Under the pieces are notes generated by a model. That model was not told the DNA's origin, ran no database searches, and was given only the letters and a program-made list of their open reading frames with translations. DNA of 64,000 nt. Source: a virus. The translations under genes and the position numbers were made by a program. Below, in pieces: positions 7,901 through 64,000 of the stretch (its first letter is position 1; the number at the start of each line of letters is the position of its first letter). Where the stretch lies: positions 62,001-126,000 of the IMG/VR virus record IMGVR_UViG_3300025536_000010; one strand, written 5' to 3'.

Positions 7901-8113
7901 GTGCTGACTCGGCGGCCGGGCGGCGTACACCAGCAGTGGCTGCCGGTCACGGACTGGTTCCACTACCGGGTCGACGCAAACGCACTGGTGACGCTGCGGC
8001 TTGGTAACGGCCGGGAGATCCACGTCACCAGGAACCACGAGTTCGTCATGGCAGACGGCACGCGGAAACTGGCGGGCGACCTGGTCGCGGGCGACGACCT
8101 GATGGAGGTTTGA
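4967..8113 (+). CDS. RNA polymerase beta subunit, N-terminal part, ending in an N-intein
   Basis: 1048 residues; GTG start at 4967 behind GAAGCGGAGG. Residues 1-949 follow bacterial RpoB in order: GTFVHKGNEYTVNHQQRLRPG near 145, the rifampicin-pocket block NPAEVFDKQSRITRMG (386-401), DPLRTPE for the usual PIETPEG, GYNFEDAVVISE near 670, GDKLSGRYGDKG with both active-site lysines (805 and 813), and LNPLGVISRTNP. From Cys950 (7814) to the stop, 99 residues form an intein N-terminal fragment inserted in the conserved GGxAQ-G segment. Cys950 is the only cysteine of the polypeptide. The rest of beta is encoded from 10150. Unlike the diverged phiKZ-type phage polymerases, this beta is easily aligned by eye to bacterial RpoB. 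It probably acts as a phage, possibly virion-packaged, transcriptase. Confidence 0.95.
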   Translation: MAGLLADFPKPKAPALDLPQTKAQSILSSGPLTAPPTPAPQMREFGDARLTRQYIYEDALNAARNIEPIEDERYRLRLADVDWADPERFTRKQRKAAILAGDTLARRLRGSWVLEDVATGKEIQRRAQIVGRIPYLSSMGTFVHKGNEYTVNHQQRLRPGVFARVKDNGEIESHVNVLPGKGVSHRYFLDPEKELFKLRLGQAEMPLLPLVQALGATDKEVREAWGDQLFAANYKHLDSGQTIKKLAARLLRRADQGLDEGTTRQRLADTINRMELDPEVTKRTLGQPYANLNKEVILNATKKLIQVNRREVDPDDRDSLAYQQFFGPEDLFAERLRRDHGNLRKQLFRKIALAGNLDKMPSGALTPQVEQVLLGSGLAQALEEINPAEVFDKQSRITRMGEGGIPSLDAIPDEARAVQPSHMGFMDPLRTPESFRVGVDLHMARSSRKGRDGRIYTSLRDQQGNMVWKSPQDVAEASIATPDVLKWDTKRVPVMKGGKLAYVPKNEVDFVLPNFEDSFSPLGNMVPLKSMVKGQRVAMASRMLTQALPLTAAEAPLVQSGLPGSKGARSFEEEYGKHMGAVAADSDGRVVDVRDGVIKLKYNDGRTDEVELYENHPFNRKTYINQTAVVKPGDAITKGQLLAHSNYTDKTGATALGTNLNVAYWPYLGYNFEDAVVISESGAKKMSSEHMYQHDLEVTDKHKIGKRHYVNLFPGKFDKKAYENLDDDGIVRPGTVVNHGDPLILAARQKEFAQNKIHKKKQAGYGDESLLWKHHDPGVVTDVVWGKNGPVVLVKSQSQMQVGDKLSGRYGDKGVVAAIVPDSQMPHGRDGNPFELLLNPLGVISRTNPAQKVEAQLGKIARLTGKPVKVPDFEDEEDLTAWAQMQLRMHGLKDTEDIVWPEKNMKVPGIHSGTRFFMKLHHTAESKGQGRGGGSYSMDDTPAKGGAQGCFLAGTHLHTAEHGFQDIARIVGRRMPVKVLTRRPGGVHQQWLPVTDWFHYRVDANALVTLRLGNGREIHVTRNHEFVMADGTRKLAGDLVAGDDLMEV
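7814..8110 (+). other. Split intein, N-terminal half
   Basis: Residues 950-1048 of the beta frame. Block A is CFLAGTHLHTAEHGFQDIAR with Cys1 as the splicing nucleophile. Block B is GREIHVTRNHEFV, containing TRNH with Thr1021 and His1024. It ends with LVAGDDLMEV and then TGA, the usual end of a split N-intein of about 100 residues. The N-extein residue is Gly949. No homing-endonuclease domain is present. The matching C-half is at 10027-10149. Confidence 0.92.
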
Positions 8114-8116
8114 GTC

Positions 8117-10030
8117 ATGGAAGACCTTGGAGTCTTGGCGGCGAAAGCCGCTACGCTGCGCGTGAAACTGGCAAACGTGGCGGCCTTGGCGGCTTCGCCG
8201 GCCGGCGAGAGCGCACTCGCGCGCCTGGGCGGTTGGCTGTCCGGCAAAGCATTCAAGCCGGTATCGCAGATGGCTCGTCCGCAGTTCGGCACGCTTAACG
8301 CGCTTGGTGAAGAAGCGCAGGCGCTGGCGCGCCAGCAGCGCATGAGCCGGCTGACTCTAGGCTTATCCGACAAGCCGTACTTCCATGTTCAAGATCGTGT
8401 TGGTGGCGGCTTAGCCGGTGCCTGGCTCGGTGCGTACGCAGACAGTAAAGTGAACGGCGAGGTCAACGACCTCTCCAGTGCCGGGCGCCGTGCGGCAGCG
8501 GTGCTCGGCGGCGGTTATCTGGGCGGTAAAGGCGCGAACTCGGCTTTGAACGTCGGCCGCAAGTTTACAGCGAACACGTCGCCGCTCATGGGTTACGACA
8601 CGGCTTTGATTCCGAAAGTGTCGCTCAAGTCTATCTGGAACCACGGCGTCATGGACCGCCCAATGGGCGGCATCGCGCGCGGCGGTAGCGGCAGTGAGGC
8701 TAACCCGCGCTACGAACTGCTGCGGCGCTATCTCGGCATTCACAAGAACGACGCGGCCAAAGACATGTTCATCTCGAACGCGGACAAGTCGCTGTCGTTC
8801 AACCCGGCAGTCGTAAAGCCTGGCTCGAAAACATGGCAGCAGTACATTGACCCAGGGCGGCAAGACAGCAGCCTGGGTGTCCGATTCAGCGAGGGCCTCA
8901 AGAACCCACCCAAGCTCGAAGTACCCAATAGCGCCCCGCCCAAGCTCGAAGTATCCGGCAACGCCCCGGCCAAGAGTCTCATTCTTCCGGGCGCTAACCC
9001 GGAACCGCCGCGCAGCGTTTTGCTGGGCGGTGGCCAGCCGACAGGGCCGGCTAAAAAGCTGATCCTGCCGGGACAGGAACCAAACGCACCTGCACCGGCG
9101 CTGGTCATGCCCGGTCAAGGTCAAGCGCCCAGACCTGCGCCGAAGCCAGCGGCCCCGGAGAAAACGTACAGCCTCAACGAGGGCGACCTGGCTAACCCAC
9201 CTGGGTACAGCGTCGACCAGAAGAACAACCCGTTCAACAATCTGTTCGGCTCGCACGACATGCGCCACGTCCAGGGCTCTGTTGAGCGCTTGCCGGGCGG
9301 CAAGTTCCGCACCTCGCACGAGCTAGGTGACACCTGGAACTTCCGTCTCGACCCGCACGAGACGCCAGAAGCCGCTGCTTACCTCAAAGGCATGGCTGGC
9401 ACGTCGCCTAACCGCTGGGGCGAGTTCCTCAAGCAGAAGGCGGACATCGGACACGCCAGTGCCTACGGCGGCCCGGATAAAACAGTGAGCGACCGGCTCA
9501 AGAACTACGGCATGCGCAGTGTCATCGAAGCGGCAGCACAGAAAGAAGCTCCGGTCATTCGGCAACGTATGCGCTTCACTTACGAGGCACCTACCGAAGC
9601 CAACGCGGCTTTCGCCAAGGCGACTGGCGGAGTAGCGCCGAGCGAGATCGAGTTGTTGTCGTCCAACGTCGCCGGGCCTGCCGTGCTTAGCCCCGAACGT
9701 CAGCAAATGCTGCGGCGGCTGCTTGGCGGCAGTGCAGTCGCGGGCACCGGCGGCCTTTACGCGAGCGGCCAGCTACCGAGCAAAGACACGCCCCAGGCTG
9801 CAACGCCACAGCCGCAGCCGCTAACGCCAAAACAAGAGGCACCTGCGTCGAAGACGTGGCGACCACGGGGACGAGAAGCACTATCGGCTTTCTTCCGCAA
9901 GCCGAAGTCTGAGCTATCTACTCGGCAGAAAATGATCCGCGGTGTCACCGACCGCGCGGCCGGCGGCATCCGCAGCTTCTGGGACCGTATGCAGCAGCGT
10001 TATGGCGGCAGTGGAGGGCTCGGAGCGTGA
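8117..10030 (+). CDS. Virion-like protein encoded between the split-intein halves
   Basis: 637 residues, not recognised. ATG 8117 uses GGAGG inside the end of the N-intein (GATGGAGGTTTGAGTC); its TGA overlaps the GTG of the C-intein gene (GTGA, 10027-10030), so all three are coupled. A glycine-rich hydrophobic segment (about 95-140: GGGLAGAWLGAY, AAVLGGGYLGG) is followed by proline-rich degenerate repeats (about 255-345: PKLEV, KSLILPG, KKLILPG, ALVMPG) and a globular-looking region. It has no HNH, LAGLIDADG or GIY-YIG motif, so it is not the homing endonuclease often found between intein halves. Its style matches other putative internal virion proteins here. Confidence 0.75.
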   Translation: MEDLGVLAAKAATLRVKLANVAALAASPAGESALARLGGWLSGKAFKPVSQMARPQFGTLNALGEEAQALARQQRMSRLTLGLSDKPYFHVQDRVGGGLAGAWLGAYADSKVNGEVNDLSSAGRRAAAVLGGGYLGGKGANSALNVGRKFTANTSPLMGYDTALIPKVSLKSIWNHGVMDRPMGGIARGGSGSEANPRYELLRRYLGIHKNDAAKDMFISNADKSLSFNPAVVKPGSKTWQQYIDPGRQDSSLGVRFSEGLKNPPKLEVPNSAPPKLEVSGNAPAKSLILPGANPEPPRSVLLGGGQPTGPAKKLILPGQEPNAPAPALVMPGQGQAPRPAPKPAAPEKTYSLNEGDLANPPGYSVDQKNNPFNNLFGSHDMRHVQGSVERLPGGKFRTSHELGDTWNFRLDPHETPEAAAYLKGMAGTSPNRWGEFLKQKADIGHASAYGGPDKTVSDRLKNYGMRSVIEAAAQKEAPVIRQRMRFTYEAPTEANAAFAKATGGVAPSEIELLSSNVAGPAVLSPERQQMLRRLLGGSAVAGTGGLYASGQLPSKDTPQAATPQPQPLTPKQEAPASKTWRPRGREALSAFFRKPKSELSTRQKMIRGVTDRAAGGIRSFWDRMQQRYGGSGGLGA

Positions 10031-10149
10031 AAATAACTTCGGTAGAACCGTTCGCCGGCACTGCGGATCTGGAGGGGAAGGTGGACGTCTACGACATTAC
10101 CGTCGCGGACCTCCACCTTTACGGCGTCTACGGAGTGCTGGTGTCCAAC
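10027..10149 (+). other. Split intein, C-terminal half
   Basis: 41 residues: a strand region (MKITSVEPF), block F (VYDITVADLHLYG) and block G (VLVSN, then Ser+1 at 10150). The terminal Asn41 and the following Ser are the residues needed for cyclisation and transesterification. The usual penultimate His is Ser here, a variant known in some active inteins. The pairing with 7814-8110 is supported by continuity of the beta sequence across the junction. Confidence 0.9.
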
Positions 10150-11787
10150 AGCAAGCGCGTGGCCATGCTGGACACCAACGCCCTGCTGTCGCACGGGGCC
10201 ACGGAAACGCTGCGTGACGTCCGCCTGATTCGCGGCCAGGGCCGAGCCAGTGAGAACTACTGGCTCCAGTTCATGATGGGTTACACGCCGGTCGACCCCA
10301 AGGTGCCGCAGACGCACGAGAAGTTCGTCAACCAGCTGAAAGCCTCTGGCATCAACGTGGTCCGCGACGGCTACCAGATGAACGTCATGGCCCTGACCAA
10401 CCGGGACGTGGACACCCTGGCGTCCGACCGCATCATCAAGAGCGGGGACACCGTGCGCTTCGACAAGGAACTCAAACCGATCCCGGGTGGCCTGTTCGAT
10501 CCCACGCTCACCGGCGGACACAACGGTAAGCGCTGGGCGGCTATCGAACTGCCCGAACCGATGCCCAACCCGGTCATGGAGGAGCCGATCCGGCGCATGC
10601 TGAACCTGACCCAGAAACAGTTCAGCGCCGTCCTGGCGGGCGAGCACGAACTGCCTAGCTTCGGCAGCGGCCCCAAAGCGATCACCCAGGCCCTGGAGAA
10701 CATCAACCTGGAACGCGAGTTGGCCAAAGCCAAGGCCGAATACACCCACGGACGCGGTACAGCCCGCGACGCTGCGCACCGGCGCTGGCAGTATCTCGAC
10801 GGCGCCCAGAAGCGCGGTCTGCATCCCAAAGATTGGATACTGAACCGCGTGCCAGTGCTGCCGCCGGCCTTCCGCCCGGTCAGCGTCATGGGGGACTCCG
10901 GCGTACCCCTGGTGTCGGACCCCAACTACCTCTACAAGGAGTTGCTCGACGCCAACAAGAATTTCACGGACATGGTCAAGCAGGTGGGGGACAAGAACGT
11001 CGGCAACGAGCGGCTGGCGGTCTACAACTCGTTCAAGGCGGTTACCGGCCTGGGCGAGCCTGTTCACCCCAAGCTGATCGAGAAAAACGTGAAAGGCATT
11101 CTCAAATCCGTTTTTGGAACCTCGCCGAAGTTCGGCACGGTGCAGCGGAAACTGCTGTCCTCGACCGTCGACAACGTGGGCCGCTCGGTCATTACGCCGA
11201 ACCCTGACTACGATATGGACACCATCGGCGTGCCCGAGAACCAGGCGTTCGACGTCTACTCGAAGTTCATCGTCCGCCGCCTGCGCCGCCGGGGCCTACC
11301 GATCCGCGAGGCTCTCAAGCACGTCCGCGACAAATCGGGCCTGGCCCGGGACGTTCTCCAGGAAGAGATGGACAACCGGCCGGTCTATGTCAACCGGGCT
11401 CCGGTGCTGCACAAATTCGGTATCATGGCCTTCCGCCCGCGGTTGATTAAGGGGGACGTCCTCCAGGTCAGCCCGTTGATCGTCAAAGGCTTCAACGCTG
11501 ACTTTGACGGGGACGCCATGCAGTTTCACGTCCCGTCGTCCGATGAAGCGGTCAAGGAAGCCTACGAGCGGATGCTGCCCAGTCGCTCGCTGCTTAGCCC
11601 GGCCGATTTCAAAAGCCCGGTCCACGCTCCTGGCCAGGAGTACCTGGGCGGGCTCTACTACGCGACGCGCCAGCGTGAGGAAGACAAGCAGCGGCGGCCC
11701 CGCGTGTTCCGTTCCGTAGCCGACGCCAAGAAGGCGCACCAGCGCGGCGAGATCACAGCGGACACGCCGATTCAGATCATGGAGTAA
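10027..11787 (+). CDS. C-intein, beta C-terminus and beta' N-terminal half, fused
   Basis: 586 residues; GTG 10027 with GGAGGG upstream. Residues 1-41 are the intein C-half. From Ser42, SKRVAMLDTNALLSHGATETL matches the end of beta (bacterial GEMEVWALEAYGAAYTL). With no visible linker it runs into the start of beta' (GGLFDPTLTGG near 155). Beta' landmarks follow: WILNRVPVLPPAFRPV, GRSVITPNP, NRAPVLHKFGIMAFRP and the metal-binding NADFDGDAM (Asn490 to Asp496; Asp492, 494, 496). The N-terminal zinc ribbon cysteines of bacterial beta' are missing; the protein has no cysteine at all. It stops soon after GLYYATR, at an interdomain point of beta'. After trans-splicing it would form a beta-beta'N chain of about 1490 residues. 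Confidence 0.95.
   Translation: MKITSVEPFAGTADLEGKVDVYDITVADLHLYGVYGVLVSNSKRVAMLDTNALLSHGATETLRDVRLIRGQGRASENYWLQFMMGYTPVDPKVPQTHEKFVNQLKASGINVVRDGYQMNVMALTNRDVDTLASDRIIKSGDTVRFDKELKPIPGGLFDPTLTGGHNGKRWAAIELPEPMPNPVMEEPIRRMLNLTQKQFSAVLAGEHELPSFGSGPKAITQALENINLERELAKAKAEYTHGRGTARDAAHRRWQYLDGAQKRGLHPKDWILNRVPVLPPAFRPVSVMGDSGVPLVSDPNYLYKELLDANKNFTDMVKQVGDKNVGNERLAVYNSFKAVTGLGEPVHPKLIEKNVKGILKSVFGTSPKFGTVQRKLLSSTVDNVGRSVITPNPDYDMDTIGVPENQAFDVYSKFIVRRLRRRGLPIREALKHVRDKSGLARDVLQEEMDNRPVYVNRAPVLHKFGIMAFRPRLIKGDVLQVSPLIVKGFNADFDGDAMQFHVPSSDEAVKEAYERMLPSRSLLSPADFKSPVHAPGQEYLGGLYYATRQREEDKQRRPRVFRSVADAKKAHQRGEITADTPIQIME
11101..11120. promoter_or_regulatory. AT-rich motif, intragenic copy
   Basis: CTCAAATCCGTTTTTGGAAC inside the beta-beta' gene matches the intergenic AT-rich motif family. 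It encodes LKSVFGT in frame, so it may be coincidence or an internal regulatory site. Confidence 0.25.
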
Positions 11788-14216: not shown

Positions 14217-14627
14217 GTGTTCGATACCATCCGCTCTTGGTGGCGAGGCGTCCCCAAACACGAAGTCAAAGAGGTCGAGTGGGGGCGACGGATCGCCAAG
14301 GCGCTCACGACCTACGGCCTGGCCACCCGCGACGAGGTCCGCATCTTCGACGGCACGCGCATCGACCTGCTTACGCCACACCATGCCGTCGAGATCGACT
14401 GGGCGCCGAAGTGGGCTGAGGCCATCGGACAGTCGCTCTACTACGGCGTCCGGTCCAAAAAGCAGGCCGTTGTCCTCCTGCTGCTGTGCGACTCCCGCGA
14501 CGAGGCGTATATCGTCCGCTGCCGCGCGGTCTGCACTACGAATACGCCCAAGATTCCGATTTGGCTGCTCAACACCAAGAGCCGTGTTTTGTACCTCGCG
14601 GACGGACAGACGATCACGGTGGAGTAA
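14217..14627 (+). CDS. PD-(D/E)XK-like nuclease-fold protein
   Basis: 136 residues; GTG 14217 with GAGGGAGGGAGCCC upstream. The core has the order expected of a restriction-endonuclease-like fold: an N-terminal helix with Glu18/Glu21, Asp50 (RIDLLT), then Glu59-Ile-Asp61 and Lys65 (HAVEIDWAPKWAEAIGQSLYY), followed by a strand (AVVLLLLC). Similar small proteins occur in bacteria and phages; their substrates are unknown to me. Its TAA overlaps the ATG of the beta' C-terminal gene (TAATG). Its position at the break in beta' suggests it could be a relic or agent of insertion, which is inference. Confidence 0.6.
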   Translation: MFDTIRSWWRGVPKHEVKEVEWGRRIAKALTTYGLATRDEVRIFDGTRIDLLTPHHAVEIDWAPKWAEAIGQSLYYGVRSKKQAVVLLLLCDSRDEAYIVRCRAVCTTNTPKIPIWLLNTKSRVLYLADGQTITVE

Positions 14628-17600
14628 TGCTCAAAACCACGATGGGGCAGCTGCTTGTCAATGACTCGCTGCCCGAAGACCTGCGCGATTACGGGCGCAT
14701 CCTCGACAAAAAGGGGATGGCGACCTTGCTGCGCACCGTGGCCGAGAAATACCCGGACCAGTACCGCGACGTCTCGAAGAAGCTGGCCGACATCGGCCGC
14801 AACGTCGCCAGCGAGTTTGGTGGCAACAGTTTCGGGCTGGCGCACATGGCCAAGTCCGGCCTGGGGCAGCAGTACCAGAAGAACTTGCAGGCGAAGCTCA
14901 AGCAGATCCTTGACGATGACAACCTGGACGACGCTAAGCGGCAGGAGTTGATCGTCAAAGCGGCGGGCATGGACCGCGAGAAGCAGATGAAGTCGATCCT
15001 GGAAGAGGCCATCAAAAACAAGAACCCGCTGGCCTCCCAGGTGATCTCCGGTTCGCGCGGCAACGAGATGAACCTGGCCTCGCTGCTGGACTCCGACCGG
15101 CTGTACTCCGACCACCGGGATCAGCCGCTGGCCATCCCTATCGTCCACAGCTACAGCCAGGGCCTGCGGCCCATCGAATACTGGGCTGGCACCTACGGCG
15201 CCCGCAAGGGCGTCATGGCGACCAAGTTTGCCACCCAGGACGCCGGCTTTTTGAGCAAGCAGTTAAACCAGGTCGCCCACCGTCTGATGGTGGTGGACGA
15301 GGACGACCCGCGCTACGAAGGCGACCCGACACCGCGCGGCTTGCCGGTAGACACAGACGACCCCGACAACGAAGGGGCGCTGCTGGGCATGGACGTTGGC
15401 CCGTACAAGCGGAACACCGCGCTGACTCCCAAAATTCTCAAGGACTTGAAAAGGAGGGGACATGCTCGCCTTCTTGTCCGAAGCCCGGTGGTGGGCGGCA
15501 GTCCTGATGGTGGTATTTACGCACGGGATGTTGGTGTGCGTGAACGTGGCACTCTTCCTGGTCGCGGTGAGCAGGTTGGACTCACCGCTGCCCAGGCGCT
15601 GTCGGAGCCGCTGTCGCAGGGGCAGCTGTCGGCTAAGCATTCGGGCGGCGTCGCGGGGCAGGAGAAAGCGGTCGGCGGCTTCCAGTACATCAACCAGCTG
15701 ATTCAGGTGCCCAAGGTGTTCAAAGGCGGGGCGGCGCACTCAAACGAGGACGGCAGCGTCGAACGGATCGAGGAAGGTCCGGCCGGTGGCCAGTTCGTCT
15801 GGATCAACGGCAAGCGGCACTACGTCGGCGAGGGTTTTGAGTTGAAGGTGAAACCTGGCGACCAGGTCGAGGCTGGTGACCTGATCTCGGAAGGTCTGCC
15901 CAACCTGAACGTCGTTGTGGACCATAAGGGACGTGGCGAGGGCGCACGCTATTTCGTCAACTCGTTCGTGGACGCGATGCGCGGGGCCGGGCTCAAGGTC
16001 AACCGGCGCAACGTGGAAGTGCTGGCTCGGGGGCTTATCAACCATGTCCGACTCACCGACGAGTTCCAGGGCAACCTGCCCGACGACGTTGTCCCCTACA
16101 GCACCCTTGAGCACCTCTACGAACCACGCGAGGGTCACCAGACTCTACGAACTGAGCGCGCTTTGGGACAATACCTTGAGCGCCCAGTTCTACACTACAG
16201 CATCGGCACGAAGGTCCGCCCTTCGGTCCTTAAAGAGCTTCAACAGTTTGGTATTAAGGAAGTTGCTGTTCACGCAGAGCCGCCTCCGTTCAAGTCCGAG
16301 ATGATCCGTGGTATGTACTCCCTCCAGCACGACCCGGATTGGATGACCCGCATGTACGGCTCCGGCCAGAAGTCGAGCCTGCTGGAGGCGGTTCACCGTG
16401 GCCGCAGTTCCAACGAACTCGGCACCAGTTTCGTGCCCGGTCTGGCTCGCGCCGAAGAGTTCGGGCGCGTGGGCCAGGTACGCCAGCCGCTACCCGGCAC
16501 GAAGCCGCCGCTCATCGAGCCCGTCACGGAGGACGAGGAGATGCCCAAGAAGAAGCCAACGACGCCGCCGACTTCGCCGATCGCGCTGAACCTCCAGCCG
16601 CCCAAGACCCCCGCACCCAAGAGCATGTTCGGCGGCATGGGGTCCATTTTCAAGCTCTCCTGTGACGCCCTAGAACAGCGGCGGGAGGCCGAGATCCTGC
16701 TGGAGAAAGCTGCTAAGCGGATCGAACAGGTTCGCCAGGCCACAGCCAAGACCAAGCAGACGCAGCAGGTGAAAGCCAGCGCACCTTTGCAGCCTGTTCG
16801 ACGCGCGCAGCAGATCAAGACGGCCGAAACGAACATCGGCAGCAGCACCGTCACGGCTGGTGGCACGACGATCAAGCCGAGCAGTCAGGGCAGCGCAGCA
16901 CCGAAACCGCCCACACCGGCAGCACCGCCAGGCGGGGACGCCTGGAGCGGTCCGCGCGGACCCGCCAACCCGACTTTCGGCGTCGGCCGCAATCCGCACG
17001 CGCTGGGCCAGGGTGGCTACAACCCGGGCATGCCGTCCGGCATCGTCAACGACCCGGAAGCGTTCTCCCGCTTCGTTGACAGCAGCCAACGATTCGGCGG
17101 GTTGACCGGCGGGGCTGTTGCTTTCGGCTCTGGCCTCGACCAGAACGCCGTGGCCACGCTGACCAACCAGAGTCCCTACGTCAAAGGGCACTACGGCTAC
17201 AGCGAGTTCGACCGGCCCACGCCGCCAGGTTACCACCCCGGCATCGGGCGCCCCGGCATGCGCGGCGGCCAACCTGGCAGGTACGGAGGCCACCCCGGTA
17301 TGCAGGACGCTGACGGCATGGACTTCGACGGTGGCTACCCCGGTTTTGACCCCTGGCAGGATCAAGGCGGGCAGCAGCAGACTCAACAGCAGGCGCCACC
17401 GCAGCCCGGTTTCGGCGCGGGCGACATGCTCCAGATGGCTCCCGGCATAACGTCTATGGGCTCCACTGGCGCGCAGCTGGGCGGGCTAGCCACACGCGGG
17501 CTGGGAGCCGCAGCGAACGCCACAGGGGCCACGCGCGTCGGCGGCGCGCTGGGACGCACTGGCGGGGCGTTGGGCCGGGCCGGCGGCTTGGTCGGCAAAG

Positions 17601-18658
17601 CCGCTACGCCGCTGGCTGTAGCCGTGGACACCGGCCAGATGATCGGACATTCGATCAACGACATCAGGAACGGACAGTTTTTCGGCGGCAACGGCGAAGT
17701 AGCCCAGGGTACGCGCCGCACGATGGACGAAATGAACAACGCCACGGACCTCTCGCGCTGGACGGACCCGAACGTCAGCAAGTTCGACCAGCTGATGGAC
17801 ACGACGCACCTCATCAACCCGGTGAGCTATGCACGGTCAGCGGGTGGCGTCATCGGCGACGTGGCCAACACAGCCATCTACGACATGCCGGCCATCCTGG
17901 GCGGCGATTTCAAAGACATGACCAGGCTAGAGTCGTCGTCGAACATCGGCAAGCACTTCGAGTCCCAGCAGAAGATCCAGCAGATGCTCTCCGACGACCA
18001 GCACAAAAAGACCCTGGCCGGCAAACAGGACGGTATCAACCCGTTCCAGTTCACGCCGCATTTCGACCCGAACAAGGACGCACTGACCAACACCTACAAC
18101 AGCCTGACGCGCTCGAAGAACCCGCTTGCCAACGTCATCGGCACCGCCCAGGATCTGCACACGTCCGTCTCGACCATGAAAGGCCAGACCGAGGGCCAGG
18201 CTCGCGGTTTCGAGCAGATCATGTCCGACCGCCGAGCCGCGAACGAGCAGCGGGCGACGCAGCTGCGCGACCTCAAGGGTAAAGGTTTCGCCCTGTCGCC
18301 GGAGGAACAGGCCATCGTCGCCAAGGCCGACGCCGACCGCAACAAGACGGAGGCCCAGCTGGTCCTGGAGGCATCCGGGTTCAAGCCAGGCGATACGAAT
18401 ACCGCGCTGTACATGACGATGGGGCACAAGTCGATCAACCCATTCGATGGCGAGCAGCGCGCCAGCGCCCTCAACCCTGTCTCCGGTCGCCGCTTGGCCG
18501 AGGAAGCGCAGACGGCCATCGACCACGGCGACACCGGCCAGCGTGTCGCCGGGCACGCCGTCAAGGACTTCACGAGCCCGGTGGCTAGCTGGGAACAGAT
18601 CCGCAGCGGTGACTTCCGCGTGCCCGGGTGGAACAGCGTTAAGTCGCTGTGGGACTAA
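14627..18658 (+). CDS. RNA polymerase beta' C-terminal half with virion-like extension
   Basis: 1343 residues; ATG 14627 overlaps the upstream stop. Residues 1 to about 625 continue beta' where the 10027 frame ends: KTTMGQLLVND (bacterial TTVGR), SGSRGNEMNL, the trigger-loop region GTYGARKGVMATKFATQDAG (about 188-207), VRSPVVGGSPDGG, GRGEQVGLTAAQALSEP near 312, and the final LLEAVHRGRSSNELGTSFVP near 600. The second zinc-site cysteines are absent. Residues from about 626 onward are not polymerase: Pro/Gly/Gln-rich linkers (GYNPGMPSG, GRPGMRGGQPGRYGG), a glycine-zipper region at about 941-1005 and a helical C-terminus. The extension resembles neighbouring virion proteins, suggesting the enzyme is packaged in the particle. 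Confidence 0.93.
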   Translation: MLKTTMGQLLVNDSLPEDLRDYGRILDKKGMATLLRTVAEKYPDQYRDVSKKLADIGRNVASEFGGNSFGLAHMAKSGLGQQYQKNLQAKLKQILDDDNLDDAKRQELIVKAAGMDREKQMKSILEEAIKNKNPLASQVISGSRGNEMNLASLLDSDRLYSDHRDQPLAIPIVHSYSQGLRPIEYWAGTYGARKGVMATKFATQDAGFLSKQLNQVAHRLMVVDEDDPRYEGDPTPRGLPVDTDDPDNEGALLGMDVGPYKRNTALTPKILKDLKRRGHARLLVRSPVVGGSPDGGIYARDVGVRERGTLPGRGEQVGLTAAQALSEPLSQGQLSAKHSGGVAGQEKAVGGFQYINQLIQVPKVFKGGAAHSNEDGSVERIEEGPAGGQFVWINGKRHYVGEGFELKVKPGDQVEAGDLISEGLPNLNVVVDHKGRGEGARYFVNSFVDAMRGAGLKVNRRNVEVLARGLINHVRLTDEFQGNLPDDVVPYSTLEHLYEPREGHQTLRTERALGQYLERPVLHYSIGTKVRPSVLKELQQFGIKEVAVHAEPPPFKSEMIRGMYSLQHDPDWMTRMYGSGQKSSLLEAVHRGRSSNELGTSFVPGLARAEEFGRVGQVRQPLPGTKPPLIEPVTEDEEMPKKKPTTPPTSPIALNLQPPKTPAPKSMFGGMGSIFKLSCDALEQRREAEILLEKAAKRIEQVRQATAKTKQTQQVKASAPLQPVRRAQQIKTAETNIGSSTVTAGGTTIKPSSQGSAAPKPPTPAAPPGGDAWSGPRGPANPTFGVGRNPHALGQGGYNPGMPSGIVNDPEAFSRFVDSSQRFGGLTGGAVAFGSGLDQNAVATLTNQSPYVKGHYGYSEFDRPTPPGYHPGIGRPGMRGGQPGRYGGHPGMQDADGMDFDGGYPGFDPWQDQGGQQQTQQQAPPQPGFGAGDMLQMAPGITSMGSTGAQLGGLATRGLGAAANATGATRVGGALGRTGGALGRAGGLVGKAATPLAVAVDTGQMIGHSINDIRNGQFFGGNGEVAQGTRRTMDEMNNATDLSRWTDPNVSKFDQLMDTTHLINPVSYARSAGGVIGDVANTAIYDMPAILGGDFKDMTRLESSSNIGKHFESQQKIQQMLSDDQHKKTLAGKQDGINPFQFTPHFDPNKDALTNTYNSLTRSKNPLANVIGTAQDLHTSVSTMKGQTEGQARGFEQIMSDRRAANEQRATQLRDLKGKGFALSPEEQAIVAKADADRNKTEAQLVLEASGFKPGDTNTALYMTMGHKSINPFDGEQRASALNPVSGRRLAEEAQTAIDHGDTGQRVAGHAVKDFTSPVASWEQIRSGDFRVPGWNSVKSLWD

Positions 18659-40825: not shown

Positions 40826-41959
40826 ATGGTGACGGCTCAGACCACTGGGAACGGTATCATCGACGGCAACAACCTGCAACAGGCTCTCACGACTGCCGGG
40901 TTGCGCGCAATCATCGGATTCACGGCGGCGCTGACAGCGCTGCTGCCAAAGATGCGGGCGAACCACTACTGGGTCGCGGACGTGTTCGCGGAGAGCATTC
41001 TCCAGTTCAAGTACGGCGTGGCCTTCACGCTGCAAAAGGCGATCAAGCTGAGCCAGATCGACCTGGCGGCGAGTATGTTCAACGGCGCGCGTCTGGACAT
41101 GCGCCTGGACGGGCTCAGGTCGCTGCGCATTGCAGAGTCGTTCGCGGCGTACAAGCACGGCATGAAGCCGATCATCCTGTGGAAGCGTCCCGACGGTCGC
41201 TACATTGTTCTGGAAGGCAATCACATTCTGTGCGCTTGCCGGGCGATGGGGATCGAGACACTGTGGGCCTACGTCATCGAGTGCGACGAAGCGACCGCAG
41301 GGCTTATCACGCGCAGCTGGAACACCGTGCAAGGGTTCGGCCAAAAAGAAGAGGACAGCTACACCCTGGCGGTGGATGAACTGACCTCGCGCGGCGAAGC
41401 CGCCGTCGTGCTCCAGACGATCAAGGACGTCGCTAAGATTTGGGGCCTGCGGTGGAAGCGGCTCCAGGAGCGCTACCGTCAGCGCCTGTTCCTCAATCAC
41501 ATGTTCAAGGCCAAAATCGACGGGGGGTTGGGCTTGAAGCCGCACGGGCACACGGACTGTTTCAGCGAGCGGACGATTGAGGCCATCATGGGCCTCAACG
41601 ACGCCGAGAAACAGCGTGAACTGTCCGAAGCTATCATGAACCACGGATTCTCGTGGGGTGTGGTCAGCAACATCGTCGCTACCAGCACGGAAGGCATGGC
41701 AGCGTTTAAGGCAGCCATCGTCACATGGACAAACGCGACGTCGGGTACGTCGCTTGATGGTACGGTGGTGCGTGTTCGGCTCACCGAACAACAGCGGATC
41801 AAGAAAGCGATTGATTCGTTTGCAAAGAGCCTCGACAGCATGCCCGACGATCTGGCCAAGGCATGCACCGCCAGCGTTGTCATGTCTCTGCGCCCGAAAC
41901 TCGACAAAATCTTGCAGCGCTGCCCGGTCATTCGGGAGGCTACCTATGGCAAGTATTGA
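40826..41959 (+). CDS. ParB-like domain protein
   Basis: 377 residues; ATG 40826 behind GTGAAAGGAGTTTTATC. Residues about 90-152 match the ParB/Srx fold: a leading RLDGLRSLRIAESFAAYKHG, a PIILWKRPDGRYIVLEGNH strand-turn-strand with the GNH motif (131-133), then ACRAMGIETLWAYVIE. In family members this domain binds nucleotides, and some act as DNA nucleases or CTP-dependent clamps. The remainder is helical and contains a possible helix-turn-helix near 195-215 (LQTIKDVAKIWGLRWKRLQ). No ParA is visible in the window. It could bind DNA or regulate transcription. Confidence 0.6.
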   Translation: MVTAQTTGNGIIDGNNLQQALTTAGLRAIIGFTAALTALLPKMRANHYWVADVFAESILQFKYGVAFTLQKAIKLSQIDLAASMFNGARLDMRLDGLRSLRIAESFAAYKHGMKPIILWKRPDGRYIVLEGNHILCACRAMGIETLWAYVIECDEATAGLITRSWNTVQGFGQKEEDSYTLAVDELTSRGEAAVVLQTIKDVAKIWGLRWKRLQERYRQRLFLNHMFKAKIDGGLGLKPHGHTDCFSERTIEAIMGLNDAEKQRELSEAIMNHGFSWGVVSNIVATSTEGMAAFKAAIVTWTNATSGTSLDGTVVRVRLTEQQRIKKAIDSFAKSLDSMPDDLAKACTASVVMSLRPKLDKILQRCPVIREATYGKY

Positions 41960-58945: not shown

Positions 58946-59743
58946 ATGCTGAACCACGCCAGGACGCTTTTGATGAACGTCGACGGCGACGCGACCCCGC
59001 TCGACGATTACCCGGGCGAGGAGGCCATCGACCCCGGCTTTCGTGCGGTCAACCTGCCGACCGCGCTGGACACGGTACGGTCGGTCATCTTCGGCACCGA
59101 TCCCGACCGGCTCATGCTCAACTACCGCTGCCGGCAGCTGCTGACCCTGCTGCACAGTACGCCGCTGGTCGAGTACGTCTACGCCCTGGACCCGCGAGTG
59201 ACCTACGATTTTGCCGACGACGCCTTCATCGCCGAAGACGCTTTCAAGCCGCGTGTCGTCAAAGTGAGCGGGCCGGAAACCGCCGTGCTGACGTTCACTG
59301 GCAAGCCCGCCAACCCAGACATCACTGGCCGCTGCCGCTATATTTTCAACGTCGACGTACCGACGTCCGAGTCTGTCGCCGTCGATAGGCTCACGCCCAA
59401 GATCCCAAAAGTGGTTTATAACTTGGAGGTGCCCAACGGCCTGTCGAACGCGATACCGCTCATGGGCAGCGGTTACTCCTGCCGGATCAACACGGATGTC
59501 GTCGGGCAGCTGTACCGCGTCGAAGTTGCCAACCGCCCGCAGCGCGACTTGGGGCAGATTGCGGCCAACCTGGGCGTCGTCGGCGAGCCGGTCACGCTGA
59601 CGCTGTTCGGACTGGAACGCACGGAACCCTGGAGAACCTTTCGGAACCTTTGGGAACAGAAGCTCGAACTGCCGCTCAAACTGGGTGGCCTGCTCTGTGC
59701 GCTGATCTATCGCACAGAAGACCGGAGGCTCGGACGTGGGTAA
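58946..59743 (+). CDS. Putative baseplate hub-associated protein
   Basis: 265 residues; ATG 58946 one base after the previous stop. Mixed alpha/beta (YRCRQLLTLLHSTPLVEYVY; AVLTFTGKPANPDITGRCRY; YRVEVANRPQRDLGQIAANL). Overlaps the GTG of the hub gene by 8 bases. Position between the tube-like baseplate protein and the hub suggests a hub adaptor such as a T4 gp48/gp54-type factor. No family recognised. Confidence 0.5.
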   Translation: MLNHARTLLMNVDGDATPLDDYPGEEAIDPGFRAVNLPTALDTVRSVIFGTDPDRLMLNYRCRQLLTLLHSTPLVEYVYALDPRVTYDFADDAFIAEDAFKPRVVKVSGPETAVLTFTGKPANPDITGRCRYIFNVDVPTSESVAVDRLTPKIPKVVYNLEVPNGLSNAIPLMGSGYSCRINTDVVGQLYRVEVANRPQRDLGQIAANLGVVGEPVTLTLFGLERTEPWRTFRNLWEQKLELPLKLGGLLCALIYRTEDRRLGRG

Positions 59744-61367
59744 GAACTACATCTATTCGGACCTGTCGGTCAAAAACGCGCTGGTGCTGGACATCGAAGG
59801 GACGCAGTACGAGGTGTCCCAGATGTCCATGTCCTGGGCGGCGAACGAGGTGCCGACTGCCGTGTGCATGCTGGCCGTGGGCCGCGACGTCCGCACACAA
59901 CAGCCCGCCAAGATCCACAGTGCTGCCAGCCACCAGCACATGAAAAAGGCCAAGATCACTTTCAACCCGCAGAAGGAGTACAGCCTCAGCGCCCAGTGGC
60001 CTGGCCAGGCCACGATCTTTGACGGCTTTTTCGTCGGCTTCGCCTACCGCAAGATCTCCGGCAAGGTCTGCGTCGTCGCCAACCTGATCCACTGGCTGGC
60101 GGCCCTGACCTTTTCCAGCTGCCTCAACAAGGCCAGCCACGTCAGCAACCCGACCTCGCTGGCCGCAGCGGCCGTGACCTCGGCGCTCGGAGCCGGCGGC
60201 GGCGAGGGCTGTTTCGTCAGCGACCTGGTCGGCGCGCAGATAGCGGGCGACGCTGTCGCCGCGGACCTGTGGAAGGCGATCTCGAAGATCTTCTGCGAGT
60301 TCGCCAAGATCGAGACGATGCCGCCGGCCCAGGAAGGTGAGTGCGCCGGTGACGGCGACCTGGCCACCAACCAGGGCGCCTTGGAAGCCCTCCAGAAGAT
60401 CGAGGGCTCTGACTGCGGCGGCGCAGGCAAGTATTACAAACCGCTGGCAATCCAGGACAGCTTCGGCGAACTGACGGACGGTATCGCCAAAGCCCTCGGC
60501 ACCGAGATGGTCGAGTCCTACGCCACCTTCTCTTTCTGGGACAAGCTGATCGGGCAGTTCTGCCCCAGCTACGGCATGGCGGTCGTACCGCGCGTGGACT
60601 CGGCCGTAGTCGTCGCCGATACGCCGGCCTACAACGGCGGTGTGTGGAAAGAACTGGAGCCCGACGAGTACGACTCCTTCGACATGACGGCGGAGTTGAG
60701 CCGGCCCCTCCAGGCGGTGGTCGTCATCGCCGGCTGGGAGAGTCAAACGCTGGAAGGGCAGCAAGAGCCTACGGCCTCGCCGCTGATTGGCGGCTGCTAT
60801 GCCTCCGACGCGGTCAAGCCCGGCGACGGCCTGCGCATGTACATCGCCCCGCCGCCCTGGCTGCGCAACCTGCACATGCTATCCGCGTACGCGGGGCATT
60901 CCTCCGGTGTCAGCCAGAACGCCCCGAGCAAAACCGGCACGACGCCCAACGCGACGCCGCCGGACCCGGATAAGCGCACCCCTGGAGCCTTCGGGCAGCA
61001 AGCCAACGGTTTCTACGACAAGTACGCGCACACGTTCTTCGTCAACCAGATGCTCCGTGGCCGCAGTGGGTCGGTTTCTGGTAAACTACGGTTCGACATT
61101 TGCCCGCTGTCCATTATTGAAGTGCTGCCTAGTTTCGAGCAGCACATCGGCGGCGAGGACCAGTTGGCCGTGACCGTCTACGGCTGCGTGCAGCGCGTGA
61201 GCATCGCCATCAACGCAGAGGCTGCGATGGCCGGGACGACTCTGGTGCTGAGCCACCTGCGGACGAGCGAAGAGAACAGTTCGGCGCGGACCAGCGCAGC
61301 CCAGCACCCACTGTTCGGCGCAGCCGTGTTCGAGGGGGCGCCGCTGGTCGACAAGTACGATCTCTAA
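59736..61367 (+). CDS. Putative baseplate hub protein, gp27-like
   Basis: 543 residues; GTG 59736, overlapping the previous gene. Beta-rich N-terminus (NALVLDIEGTQYEVSQMSMS; VPTAVCMLAVGRDVRTQQPA), a KKAKITFNPQKEYSLSAQWP strand pair, helical middle and a C-terminal domain (DQLAVTVYGCVQRVSIAINA). The early part of the sequence and its position after the tape measure suit phage hub proteins that trimerise around the spike. Assignment tentative. Confidence 0.5.
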   Translation: MGKNYIYSDLSVKNALVLDIEGTQYEVSQMSMSWAANEVPTAVCMLAVGRDVRTQQPAKIHSAASHQHMKKAKITFNPQKEYSLSAQWPGQATIFDGFFVGFAYRKISGKVCVVANLIHWLAALTFSSCLNKASHVSNPTSLAAAAVTSALGAGGGEGCFVSDLVGAQIAGDAVAADLWKAISKIFCEFAKIETMPPAQEGECAGDGDLATNQGALEALQKIEGSDCGGAGKYYKPLAIQDSFGELTDGIAKALGTEMVESYATFSFWDKLIGQFCPSYGMAVVPRVDSAVVVADTPAYNGGVWKELEPDEYDSFDMTAELSRPLQAVVVIAGWESQTLEGQQEPTASPLIGGCYASDAVKPGDGLRMYIAPPPWLRNLHMLSAYAGHSSGVSQNAPSKTGTTPNATPPDPDKRTPGAFGQQANGFYDKYAHTFFVNQMLRGRSGSVSGKLRFDICPLSIIEVLPSFEQHIGGEDQLAVTVYGCVQRVSIAINAEAAMAGTTLVLSHLRTSEENSSARTSAAQHPLFGAAVFEGAPLVDKYDL

Positions 61368-61376
61368 GGAGACAAC

Positions 61377-62105
61377 ATGGACGACTTCTTGGAGCCAGAT
61401 TTCGCGGAACCCTACAAGGCGTGGAAGGCAACGCCAGGCCCCGACACGAACGCTGGCATGCTCAAGGCACTGACGCCCACGATTGAGGGGGCCATCCGCA
61501 CGCACGTCGGCGAGCCCAACCCGCTGCTGACCAGCCGAGCCCGTTTGATGGCTCTGGAGGGCCTCCAGGGCTACGACCCGACGCGGGGCCGCCTCCAGAC
61601 GCACATGTACAACCACTTGCTGGGGCTCAAGCGGGCCAACCGACAGCAGACGACCATCCTCAAGGTGCCGGAGCGGATCTCGTTGGACCGCTACCACCTG
61701 GAGAACGCCACGAATGAACTGTCCAACGAACTCGGCCGCGAGCCCACGGACATGGAGATCGCCGACCGGGTCGGTTTCTCGCCGCGGCGGATCGCCCGCG
61801 TGCGCAGCTACAGCCCAGCCGTCGCCGAGGGCACCATCGACGAGTCCACGGAAGGCGGCGGCGTGATCGGTGGCGTCGAAGACCCGCTGCGAAGACAGCA
61901 GACCGCAGTGTACGATGTCGTCTACGACGAACTCGACACCTACCACCGGCAGATCATGGAGTTGGCCTTGGGCCTCAACGGCCGCCGACCACTCTCGAAC
62001 CAACAGATCGCCCAGAAGATGAACCGCAGCCCCGGGGCCATCAGCCAGGCTAAGCTGCGCATCCAAAAGATGCTCGACGAGGTCAACGAACTCGGACTGA
62101 GGTAA
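61377..62105 (+). CDS. Sigma-70-family transcription factor
   Basis: 242 residues; ATG 61377 behind CTAAGGAGACAAC. A reduced region 2 (about 53-90: SRARLMALEGLQGYDPTRGR, THMYNHLLGLKRANRQ) is followed by region 3 (NELGREPTDMEIADRVGFSP, 117-136, then RRIARVRS) and region 4 (about 183-236: ELDTYHRQIMELALGLNGRR, SNQQIAQKMNRSPGAISQAK), whose final helices form the -35-binding helix-turn-helix. A region 1.1 is absent. Such a factor could direct the phage or host polymerase to late promoters. It sits oddly between a baseplate hub gene and wedge genes, so it is transcribed with them. Confidence 0.82.
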   Translation: MDDFLEPDFAEPYKAWKATPGPDTNAGMLKALTPTIEGAIRTHVGEPNPLLTSRARLMALEGLQGYDPTRGRLQTHMYNHLLGLKRANRQQTTILKVPERISLDRYHLENATNELSNELGREPTDMEIADRVGFSPRRIARVRSYSPAVAEGTIDESTEGGGVIGGVEDPLRRQQTAVYDVVYDELDTYHRQIMELALGLNGRRPLSNQQIAQKMNRSPGAISQAKLRIQKMLDEVNELGLR

Positions 62106-62108
62106 GCA

Positions 62109-62564
62109 ATGCCAGCACCCAACCCGTCGCCCAAAGCCAGTATGGACCCGAACTTCGAGAAGCGCGTCGAGGAACTCAAGGAGGCCGCTAAGCAGGAGGC
62201 CGTGGAGCGCAAGCTGGGCAAGCAAGTGAAGTGGTTCAGGCCCAAAGGCTGGACCGGCGGCGAGTTCGAGTACGAGCCCATGAGCCTGCCGTTCGACAGC
62301 AACAAGGCCAACCAGGACTACAAGAGCGCCGTTCAGAGTCCAGACTCGCCAGGCACCAGCGGTGACATCATCGCCACGCAGACAATGGCTGAGTGCCTGG
62401 CGGTCATGGAGCGCGGCTTCCGGCAGCGGCACACAATGCGGCGCTGTCGCGCGATGGCCCACCACCTGGGGCGGCGCAAGGGCCAGGGCGAGACACAGGG
62501 CGTCTTCGGCAACAACTACCTGGACTACCTGCGCAGCGTGATGAAACAGTCCAGCAAGAAGTGA
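62109..62564 (+). CDS. Small hypothetical protein
   Basis: 151 residues; ATG 62109 after TGAGGTAAGCA, 3 bases after the sigma gene. Charged helical N-terminus (RVEELKEAAKQEAVERKLG), a Trp/Gly turn (WFRPKGWTGGEFEYEPMSLP) and a basic helical C-terminus (RQRHTMRRCRAMAHHLGRRK). The basic part could bind nucleic acid or be a structural patch. It is in the baseplate operon; no family recognised. Confidence 0.55.
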   Translation: MPAPNPSPKASMDPNFEKRVEELKEAAKQEAVERKLGKQVKWFRPKGWTGGEFEYEPMSLPFDSNKANQDYKSAVQSPDSPGTSGDIIATQTMAECLAVMERGFRQRHTMRRCRAMAHHLGRRKGQGETQGVFGNNYLDYLRSVMKQSSKK

Positions 62565-62571
62565 GGACCGC

Positions 62572-63054
62572 ATGGCCACCGTCGTCGACTACGAGAACCG
62601 GACTGCCGACCTGTCCGCCTTCCAGGGCGTGTTCCCGCATCTGCGTGGGCGTGAGCAGCTGCTGGCCCACGAACTGGTGCGGACCACGGACGGCGGCAGC
62701 CTGGTCACCGGCGTCCTCAAGGGTGTCCAGCGCTTCCTCGTCATCCTGCTGACGCCGCGCGGCTCGAAGCTCTACCGACCCTCCGAGGGCACCTTTTTCA
62801 TGACCGAGGCGCGGTTGGGGGCCTGGCGTACCCCGGCAGACGTCTCGACGGCGTTCTACGCCGCCCGCCTGCTAGCGGCCCGCCAGATGCGTGAAGTCGA
62901 ACTGACCACGGACCCGCCCGACGAACGCTATGGTGTGGCGACCCTGAACGGGGTTACCCTGGTGGCCGATAAGGTGTCGATTCGCGTGGACTACGAAAGT
63001 CTGGCCGGCACCAAGGTCACCGTGATAACCCCGATTCAGGTGCCGATCAAATGA
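62572..63054 (+). CDS. Baseplate wedge protein, gp25-like
   Basis: 160 residues; ATG 62572 after AAGTGAGGACCGC. The segment GVLKGVQRFLVILLTPRGSK, then LYRPSEGTFFM matches the gp25/W family pattern (a helix, 'TPxGxx', then 'PxxGT'). The family forms the baseplate wedge and nucleates the sheath. The C-terminus is a strand-rich tail (VTLVADKVSIRVDYESLAGT) normal for the family. Its end overlaps the next gene by 4 bases. Confidence 0.68.
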   Translation: MATVVDYENRTADLSAFQGVFPHLRGREQLLAHELVRTTDGGSLVTGVLKGVQRFLVILLTPRGSKLYRPSEGTFFMTEARLGAWRTPADVSTAFYAARLLAARQMREVELTTDPPDERYGVATLNGVTLVADKVSIRVDYESLAGTKVTVITPIQVPIK

Positions 63055-63524
63055 TTGCGGACCTCCTGACGGACCTGTACCAGCCGGAGGCGAAGATCAT
63101 TAAACAACTGTACCAGCGCCACACGGATACCAGCGACCCAACGAAAGGTGACTGCTTTGCAACCTGCGTGGCGATGATCCTGGGTCTGCAACAAGACGAA
63201 GTACCTAACTTCTGCGGCATTGCGACGGACTGGTGGCCTGGGTTCCAGAAATGGTTAGAGGAGCGACACCTAGTCGCTATCGAGGTCAACCTGCCGCCTC
63301 CTCCCTGGAAAAACCTTGGGGCGCTGACACCAGGCGTGCCCGTCATCCTCACAGGTAAAAGCCCAAGGGGTGATTGGTTGCACTCGATTGTTGGCATGAC
63401 GCGGTGGGATGAAGGGTTTGAGATACTCTACGACCCACACCCGGCTGGTGGCGGGTTTGATGGGCCACTCAAACATGTGCTGTTCTTTGCAGCGCTCAGA
63501 CCAGACAAGGCAGGGAAGCCATGA
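63051..63524 (+). CDS. Papain/C39-like cysteine hydrolase-fold protein
   Basis: 157 residues; ATG 63051 overlaps the upstream stop (ATGA). Residues follow a Cys-His-Asp plan: KGDCFATCVAMILGL with Cys35, WLHSIVG with His111, and LYDPHPAGGG with Asp128. This matches a family of small phage and bacterial proteins related to peptidase C39. The spacing suits a papain-like fold. It lies between baseplate genes, so it may process a tail protein or act on host peptidoglycan or peptide. The codons look less GC-rich than its neighbours', hinting at transfer. Activity is not shown. Confidence 0.6.
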   Translation: MIADLLTDLYQPEAKIIKQLYQRHTDTSDPTKGDCFATCVAMILGLQQDEVPNFCGIATDWWPGFQKWLEERHLVAIEVNLPPPPWKNLGALTPGVPVILTGKSPRGDWLHSIVGMTRWDEGFEILYDPHPAGGGFDGPLKHVLFFAALRPDKAGKP

Positions 63525-64000
63525 TCGAACTCCGGCCGTTCTCGCAGCTGAATCCCGACGACGTGGCCCAGCAGCACGCTGAGGCCCTCCAGCGCGTCCA
63601 GGAGGACAACCCCAAGCTGGACCTGCGTCGAGGCGTATTCGCCGACCTCCTGATATACTACCATTCGATCCTGGCAGGCCAGGGTCAGATGAACATCAAA
63701 GACTACTGGCGGGCGCGCAGCCTCCAGGCGATGGAGGCCGACCCGGACCTGGCCACGGCCGACCCAGACCTGGTCGGCGACGTGATTTCTAACTTCAACG
63801 TCGCCCGGCAACCAGGGGCCAAAGCAACAGGCGAGGTCACCATCGTCGTTACCGACAGCATCACGGTGACCATCGGCATCGGGGCTGTTTTCGAGGCCCA
63901 GGGCCTGCGTTTCATTACCACGCGCGTCTTCACTGGCAAAACCTCCGGCCGGATCGACGACCCCGGCGACCGTTTGCTCACTCAGACGGCAGACGGTAAC
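63521..64000 (+). CDS. Baseplate J/gp6-like protein, 3'-partial
   Basis: ATG 63521 overlaps the previous TGA; the frame stays open to the end of the window, giving 160 residues. After a helical N-terminus (LNPDDVAQQHAEALQRVQED), the region FNVARQPGAKATGEVTIVVT, then VTIGIGAVFEAQGLRFIT matches the conserved baseplate J/gp6 core (an 'R-x-x-G-x-x-A-x-G' turn, then beta strands). It is the expected next wedge gene after a gp25-like protein. Its C-terminus lies outside the window. Confidence 0.65.
   Translation, partial: MIELRPFSQLNPDDVAQQHAEALQRVQEDNPKLDLRRGVFADLLIYYHSILAGQGQMNIKDYWRARSLQAMEADPDLATADPDLVGDVISNFNVARQPGAKATGEVTIVVTDSITVTIGIGAVFEAQGLRFITTRVFTGKTSGRIDDPGDRLLTQTADGN

What the first reader, a model, noticed from the sequence alone, without database searches (positions are those of the whole stretch)
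61377..62105. Sigma-like factor embedded in the baseplate operon
A recognisable region 2-3-4 sigma factor lies between a hub gene and wedge genes, in a phage that also encodes its own bacterial-type polymerase core. A sigma made only when late baseplate genes are expressed could pair with the phage enzyme, be packaged, or give positive feedback on late genes.
Basis: partly seen in the sequence, partly recalled or inferred. Interest (0 to 1): 0.7.

Follow-up and report, generated by a model that had tools for sequence, protein, structure and literature searches.

The report
Packaged sigma for phage RNA polymerase
This giant phage carries, in the middle of its tail-baseplate genes, a small bacterial-type sigma factor that always travels with the phage's own bacterial-type RNA polymerase and, in the one relative whose particles have been analysed, is found in the virus particle together with it, so it is probably the start-site selector the phage injects to begin reading its own genes.

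Summary
ORF 61377-62105 (+, 242 aa) is a genuine sigma-70-family protein: region 3 scores 38 bits (cut-off 25.3), and its AlphaFold model keeps regions 2, 3 and 4, with only bacterial sigma factors among the listed fold matches. It lies 9 nt after a Mu gp44/VgrG-like hub gene and 3 nt before the next baseplate-operon gene.

It belongs to a family (at least 42 members) that I found undescribed. Of 27 contigs ≥150 kb chosen only for this type of phage RNA polymerase, 27 carry the sigma, 26 in the same hub–gp25–baseplate-J slot; phiKZ, AR9, YerA41 and Carin-5 lack it. The family has lost canonical core-binding and promoter-melting residues, and the phage beta lacks the flap-tip helix that docks sigma region 4.

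In relative Salmonella phage Arash, published virion proteomics found the orthologue (Gp10) beside both polymerase subunits, at RNAP-like signal per residue; Arash's second, canonical sigma was not listed.

Best reading: a late-made, packaged specificity subunit of an injected virion RNA polymerase. Not shown: core binding, promoter specificity, packaging in this phage. Reviews state that RNAP-encoding jumbo phages lack recognisable sigmas. New variant of a known kind.

The parts
61377..62105 (+). sigma-70-family gene, 242 aa
   Evidence: Pfam r3 38 bits, PHROG 351, AF2 + Foldseek sigma factors
61366..61371 (+). AAGGAG ribosome-binding site of the sigma gene
   Evidence: sequence
61452..61670 (+). 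region 2 equivalent (residues about 26-98), degenerate: DLIQEG core-binding motif and region 2.3 aromatic residues replaced
   Evidence: 42-member alignment; AF2 helices 22-43, 49-64, 73-80, 83-92; limits approximate
61671..61817 (+). region 3 (residues about 99-147), best conserved domain
   Evidence: Sigma70_r3; limits approximate
61884..62096 (+). region 4 equivalent with helix-turn-helix (residues about 170-240)
   Evidence: AF2; weak Sigma70_r4 E=0.0032
59736..61367 (+). tail hub gene (VgrG / Mu gp44 / T4 gp27 fold), 543 aa
   Evidence: AF2 + Foldseek best 6j0m E=2.9e-11
62109..62564 (+). 151-aa baseplate-operon gene, next downstream, conserved in the slot
   Evidence: synteny
62572..63054 (+). 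gp25-like baseplate gene
   Evidence: alignment pattern read by eye, synteny
63521..64000 (+). Baseplate J / wedge gene, cut by the window end (continues to record position 127173)
   Evidence: Baseplate_J (weak), PHROG 6 2.9e-6
4967..8113 (+). phage RNAP beta; residues from 950 look like the N-half of a split intein
   Evidence: Rpb2_6 4.3e-53, PDB match
10027..11787 (+). phage RNAP beta' N-part with clamp helices and NADFDGD; first 41 residues look like the C-half of a split intein
14486..18658 (+). phage RNAP beta' C-part
   Evidence: Rpb1_5 1.4e-16

Best explanation
The protein is the promoter-specificity (sigma) subunit of the phage's own virion RNA polymerase. It is translated late from the baseplate operon, binds the phage beta-beta' core rather than host core, is packaged with it, and is injected so that the phage can start transcription in the next cell. 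Shown by computation: sigma fold, fixed slot in a virion-gene operon, two-way co-occurrence with the phage RNAP, changed contact surfaces on both putative partners. Shown by a published experiment on an orthologue (Arash Gp10): presence in purified virions with both RNAP subunits. Inferred: late timing, direct core binding, promoter recognition, injection, and that this phage behaves like Arash.
For: All sigma-family contigs of at least 150 kb encode the RNAP, and 27 of 27 large contigs picked by RNAP alone encode the sigma, 26 of them in the same slot. Four other phages with multisubunit RNAPs lack it. Arash virion table: RNAP Gp206 3516 spectra, Gp216 1210, sigma Gp10 467 with 24 unique peptides; second sigma Gp196 not listed. 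Spectra per residue of Gp10 (2.00) equal those of Gp206 (2.31) and Gp216 (2.00) and exceed baseplate Gp13 (0.98). Core-binding residues of region 2.2 replaced in nearly all of 42 members while Arash Gp196 keeps most of them; E. coli beta' R275 position changed in the phage enzymes inspected and flap-tip helix absent. Only one sigma gene of this kind in the window genome.
Against: All members are one lineage, so co-occurrence and congruent trees are also expected of any core gene. The Arash authors allow that abundant enzymes may be carried over into particle preparations, and spectral counts there are noisy. No promoter class could be tied to this sigma: the Arash GGTATAAG promoters co-occur with Gp196. 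Loss of the melting residues and of the flap tip could also mean loss of sigma function. No binding or complex prediction was possible.
Confidence: 0.68

Rival explanations
1. Exaptation: a former sigma that has become a structural or assembly component of the baseplate and no longer acts in transcription.
For: Invariant slot between hub and gp25/J genes; present in Arash virions; canonical core-binding and melting residues lost; region 4 hardly recognisable in the Arash clade.
Against: Region 3 and the conserved DNA-binding folds persist across very divergent members. Arash signal per residue resembles the RNAP subunits, not flanking baseplate proteins. Phages without this RNAP that keep the gene were not found.
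Confidence: 0.15
2. A conventional late sigma that redirects host core RNAP, as T4 gp55 does, with virion presence a carry-over.
For: Many phages use sigmas on host core (review PMC7598289); gene lies in a virion-gene operon; some carry-over is possible.
Against: Core-binding positions D403, Q406, E407, N409 replaced, with reversal to Arg/Lys at two of them in most members. Strict linkage to a phage RNAP. In Arash a second sigma with most of these residues intact exists.
Confidence: 0.1
3. A packaged inhibitor or sequestering factor aimed at host RNAP (anti-sigma-like or decoy sigma), injected to shut down host transcription.
For: Packaged in Arash; degenerate region 2 could bind without opening promoters.
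Against: It does not explain strict linkage with a phage RNAP, and the changed core-binding surface argues against host-core binding.
Confidence: 0.05

Closest known systems
Salmonella phage Arash Gp10 (WGL32461.1; PMC10585845) and Vibrio phages D69/D148/D181
   Same: Orthologous sigma at the same place in the baseplate operon, same RNAP lineage; Gp10 found in virions.
   Different: About 28% or less identical; region 4 degenerate; Arash also has a second, canonical sigma (Gp196) and a beta-beta' fusion encoded by one gene. The authors did not describe a family or the slot.
phiKZ / AR9 virion and non-virion RNAPs with gp68 / gp226
   Same: Phage-encoded multisubunit RNAP needing a phage-encoded specificity subunit; phiKZ packages one RNAP (reviews PMC7598289, PMC13282480).
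   Different: gp68/gp226 have no sequence similarity to sigma; phiKZ and AR9 lack this family. Here the factor is a recognisable sigma-70 protein and a single RNAP was found.
Bacteriophage T4 gp55 and other phage late sigmas
   Same: Small phage sigma, linked to late genes.
   Different: T4 gp55 works on host core (own knowledge); here core-binding residues are replaced and a phage core is always present.
Thermus phage P23-45 tape-measure-fused virion RNAP (PMC10770324)
   Same: Two-barrel RNAP carried in the tail and injected for first transcription.
   Different: Single-chain, fused to the tape measure; no sigma partner is described in the passages read.
Poxvirus virion RNAP with early transcription factor (own knowledge)
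   Same: Virus particle carries a multisubunit RNAP plus its promoter-specificity factor (functional analogy only).
   Different: Unrelated proteins and hosts.

Membership tests
Sigma-70 family | Sequence match to sigma regions | tested here: met
   Region 3 above Pfam cut-off, region 4 weak and below cut-off, region 2 not matched in the window protein; PHROG 351
Sigma-70 family | Sigma domain folds (regions 2, 3, 4) | tested here: met
   AF2 pLDDT 81.8; listed Foldseek PDB matches all sigma factors
Sigma-70 family | Canonical core-binding residues in region 2.2 (D403, Q406, E407, N409) | tested here: not met
   replaced in nearly all of 42 members; lowers the claim of binding cellular core, not of sigma descent
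Sigma-70 family | Aromatic -10 melting residues (Y430, W433, W434) | tested here: not met
   Y430 is His in 36/42; Trp at 433 in 1 and at 434 in 2 of 42
Sigma-70 family | Directs promoter-specific transcription by a core RNAP | not testable with these tools
   needs in vitro transcription
Virion RNA polymerase of jumbo phages (phiKZ type) | Phage encodes multisubunit beta/beta' homologues | tested here: met
Virion RNA polymerase of jumbo phages (phiKZ type) | RNAP present in virions | not testable with these tools
   true for relative Arash by published proteomics; no data for this phage
Virion RNA polymerase of jumbo phages (phiKZ type) | Two RNAPs (virion and non-virion) | tested here: not met
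   one PF00562 match in the window genome and one beta' place in PF00623
Virion RNA polymerase of jumbo phages (phiKZ type) | No recognisable sigma factor encoded (as stated in reviews) | tested here: not met
   this gene; statements in PMC7598289, PMC7824862
Late sigma acting on host core (T4 gp55 type) | Host-core-binding surface retained | tested here: not met
   positions D403, Q406, E407, N409 replaced; T4 gp55 itself not aligned
Late sigma acting on host core (T4 gp55 type) | Late promoters dependent on it | not testable with these tools
   no promoter class could be assigned

The most novel reading that the evidence does not exclude
A large phage lineage carries in its particles a complete bacterial-type RNAP holoenzyme: a beta-beta' core (in this phage joined by protein trans-splicing) plus a private sigma altered on both its core-binding and melting surfaces and working without the flap-tip contact, so that infection starts without the host's transcription machinery.
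Probability: 0.45. Interest if true: 0.85.

Novelty: new variant of a known kind. Interest (0 to 1): 0.72.

Why it matters
Reviews say that jumbo phages with their own multisubunit RNAP lack recognisable sigma factors and that those with sigmas use host RNAP (PMC7598289, PMC7824862, PMC13282480). This lineage breaks that division and offers a naturally isolated sigma-core pair. If true, it makes two questions directly testable: how a packaged multisubunit RNAP finds its first promoters, and whether sigma-dependent initiation can work without the flap-tip/region 4 contact. A culturable representative with a virion proteome, Arash, already exists.

Tried and rejected
Single-sequence scan of viral contigs for close relatives: none; alignments were needed. 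Assigning the Arash GGTATAAG-N5-TGTA promoters to this sigma was dropped as unproven: they occur in the genomes that also carry Gp196 and are absent from the window clade. The window phage's strongest upstream motif (TAAAAGCCAnTTTTGAG) was first taken for a promoter; relatives have palindromic versions with different centres, so it looks more like an operator for a dimeric regulator and was set aside. The annotated 'RNA pol sigma factor' beside the Cobetia phage Carin-5 RNAP gave no Pfam sigma match and no BLASTP alignment to this protein. Literature searches for a described packaged sigma or for this family found only the Arash paper; the library holds open-licence papers only.

Full report
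CHECK OF THE OBSERVATION. ORF 61377-62105 (+, 242 aa) is real: it has an AAGGAG ribosome-binding site, starts 9 nt after the previous stop and ends 3 nt before the next start. It matches Pfam Sigma70_r3 with 38 bits (cut-off 25.3), PHROG 351 RNA polymerase sigma factor at 1.5e-12, several NCBIfam sigma models below their cut-offs, and a cellular SigA chain in the PDB at 5.2e-5. An AlphaFold2 model from 21 family sequences (mean pLDDT 81.8) returned only bacterial sigma factors in the 50 PDB rows listed (best E 7.9e-8, probability 1.00). Global TM-scores are low (about 0.3) with large rmsd, as expected if the domains are placed differently. Region 4 is folded with high confidence; residues 148-169, where the region 3.2 linker would be, are disordered. 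The genome is an IMG/VR record of 234,886 bases of which the window is 62001-126000. It has no other Sigma70_r3 match.

SURROUNDINGS. The upstream gene 59736-61367 has no significant Pfam or PHROG match, but its model (pLDDT 65, pTM 0.72) matches PVC, AFP, VgrG, Mu gp44 and T4 gp27 hubs (best E 2.9e-11). Downstream are a 151-aa gene, a gp25-like gene (by eye), a gene with PHROG 5845 homology, and a Baseplate J/wedge gene. The phage also encodes RNAP beta (4967-8113), beta' N-part (10027-11787, with NADFDGD) and beta' C-part (14486-18658).

A FAMILY IN A FIXED SLOT. tblastn against GenBank phages found, besides weak hits to cyanophage sigmas, only Salmonella phage Arash gp10 and Vibrio phages D69, D148 and D181. 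In Arash and D69 the gene sits among tail/baseplate genes, and the same four phages are the only ones whose RNAP beta matches the window's over at least 80% of its length. Two alignment-based scans of IMG/VR gave many more members. All sigma-family contigs of at least 150 kb carry an RNAP beta, while two large records with canonical sigmas (G035 and cyanophage S-H34) do not. In the reverse test, 27 contigs of at least 150 kb were taken only because they encode a beta' of this type; 27 of 27 contain the sigma, and 26 show the hub upstream and/or gp25/J genes downstream. phiKZ, AR9, YerA41 and Carin-5 have none. Sigma and beta' identities correlate across 15 genomes (Mantel r=0.94, permutation p=0.0002) and the trees agree in their well-supported groups. 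The caveat is that these genomes form one lineage, so linkage alone does not prove interaction.

VIRION EVIDENCE FROM A RELATIVE. The Arash paper (PMC10585845) lists virion proteins by mass spectrometry: RNAP Gp206 with 3516 spectra (the highest), Gp216 with 1210, and sigma Gp10 with 467 spectra, 24 unique peptides and 100% coverage. I normalised 61 of the listed proteins by length: Gp10 has the most unique peptides per residue (10.3 per 100 aa), and its spectra per residue (2.00) match Gp206 (2.31), Gp216 (2.00), helicase Gp217 (2.43) and Gp218 (1.87) and exceed the baseplate protein Gp13 (0.98). Arash's other sigma, Gp196, is absent from the table, an internal control. The authors note that abundant enzymes may be carried over, and some enzymes appear with many spectra but only two unique peptides, so counts are a rough guide.

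MOLECULAR SIGNATURE. In 42 family members aligned with canonical phage sigmas (E. coli numbering by alignment and own knowledge), D403 is never kept, Q406 is mostly Ser or Gly, E407 is Arg in 25, N409 is Lys or Arg in 37, F427 is Leu in 35, Y430 is His in 36, and W433/W434 are almost always lost. Arash Gp196 keeps D403, N409, Y430, W433 and W434. The phage beta' keeps alignable clamp helices, but the position of E. coli R275, reported as important for sigma binding (own knowledge), is Ala, Val or Leu in those inspected; in the phage beta sequences inspected the flap is a short hairpin without the flap-tip helix (read by eye). This looks like a private sigma-core pair, and it predicts that region 4 cannot dock in the standard way.

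MECHANISM. Most likely (0.68): the sigma is made with the virion proteins, packaged with the RNAP, and injected to direct the first transcription. 'Binds phage core', 'is injected' and 'chooses promoters' are inferred. The main rivals are exaptation as a baseplate part, action on host core, and a decoy against host RNAP. In the Arash clade there are 41 GGTATAA sites, 40 on the strand opposite the main virion genes and 34 intergenic, against 1-5 intergenic for scrambled words; they extend to GGTATAAG-N5-TGTA with a weak A-rich element about 17 bases upstream and are conserved on one strand in relatives. That same clade has Gp196, whose gene is preceded by a TTGACT-17-TACTAT sequence typical of host promoters, so Gp196 may equally be the factor that reads them. 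For the window clade no promoter of this sigma was identified.

NOVELTY. Reviews state that jumbo phages with RNAPs lack recognisable sigmas and that phages with sigmas use host RNAP. Apart from the Arash table, no description of a packaged sigma or of this family was found in the held literature. I rate it a new variant of a known kind: a phage multisubunit RNAP, probably packaged, with a recognisable dedicated sigma.

Noticed in passing
7814-8110 and 10027-10149: Apparent split intein in the RNA polymerase: beta ends with an intein N-half (CFLAGT...VTRNHEFVMADG) and beta' N-part starts with an intein C-half (VYDITVADLHLYGVYGVLVSN, then Ser). Relatives encode beta and beta' N-part as one fused protein with Gly-Ser at that junction, so trans-splicing would rebuild the fusion.
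   Followed up: partly
8117-10030: A 637-aa ORF without Pfam match sits between the two split-intein halves; the relative G016 has only about 30 bases there.
   Followed up: partly
L061 and L056 (relatives G016, G001), beta genes: Large in-frame insertions in beta that look like further inteins (start Cys, end GNS or ANS) at other conserved sites.
   Followed up: no
window 14189, 22849, 32023, 47671 and other record positions: Conserved near-palindrome CTAAAAGCCAnTTTTGAG (or CTAAAAAGTGGATTTTG) just upstream of genes, 15 sites of which 14 intergenic, none in random sequence; relatives G016 and G021 have similar AAAA-N5-TTTT sites with other centres.
   Followed up: partly
record positions 40977, 100843, 101594, 150536 (the second and third are window 38843 and 39594): A second repeated upstream element CTAAATA...GTCA...ATA, four intergenic copies, none in random sequence.
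   Followed up: no
Salmonella phage Arash (L016-L019) and relatives G010-G015, G026, D69: Strong promoter-like motif GGTATAAG-N5-TGTA, almost only on one strand, in the genomes that also carry a second sigma (Gp196); virion-strand genes instead often have TAAAATA upstream.
   Followed up: partly
record ends (portal gene, 234027-234886 and 25-1200): The portal gene is split over the two ends of the record and the translated ends overlap, so the contig is probably a complete genome although classed as linear.
   Followed up: partly
Cobetia phage Carin-5 (L107:7077-7664): A gene annotated as RNA pol sigma factor next to a phage RNAP, but with no Pfam sigma match and no alignment to the window sigma.
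   Followed up: partly
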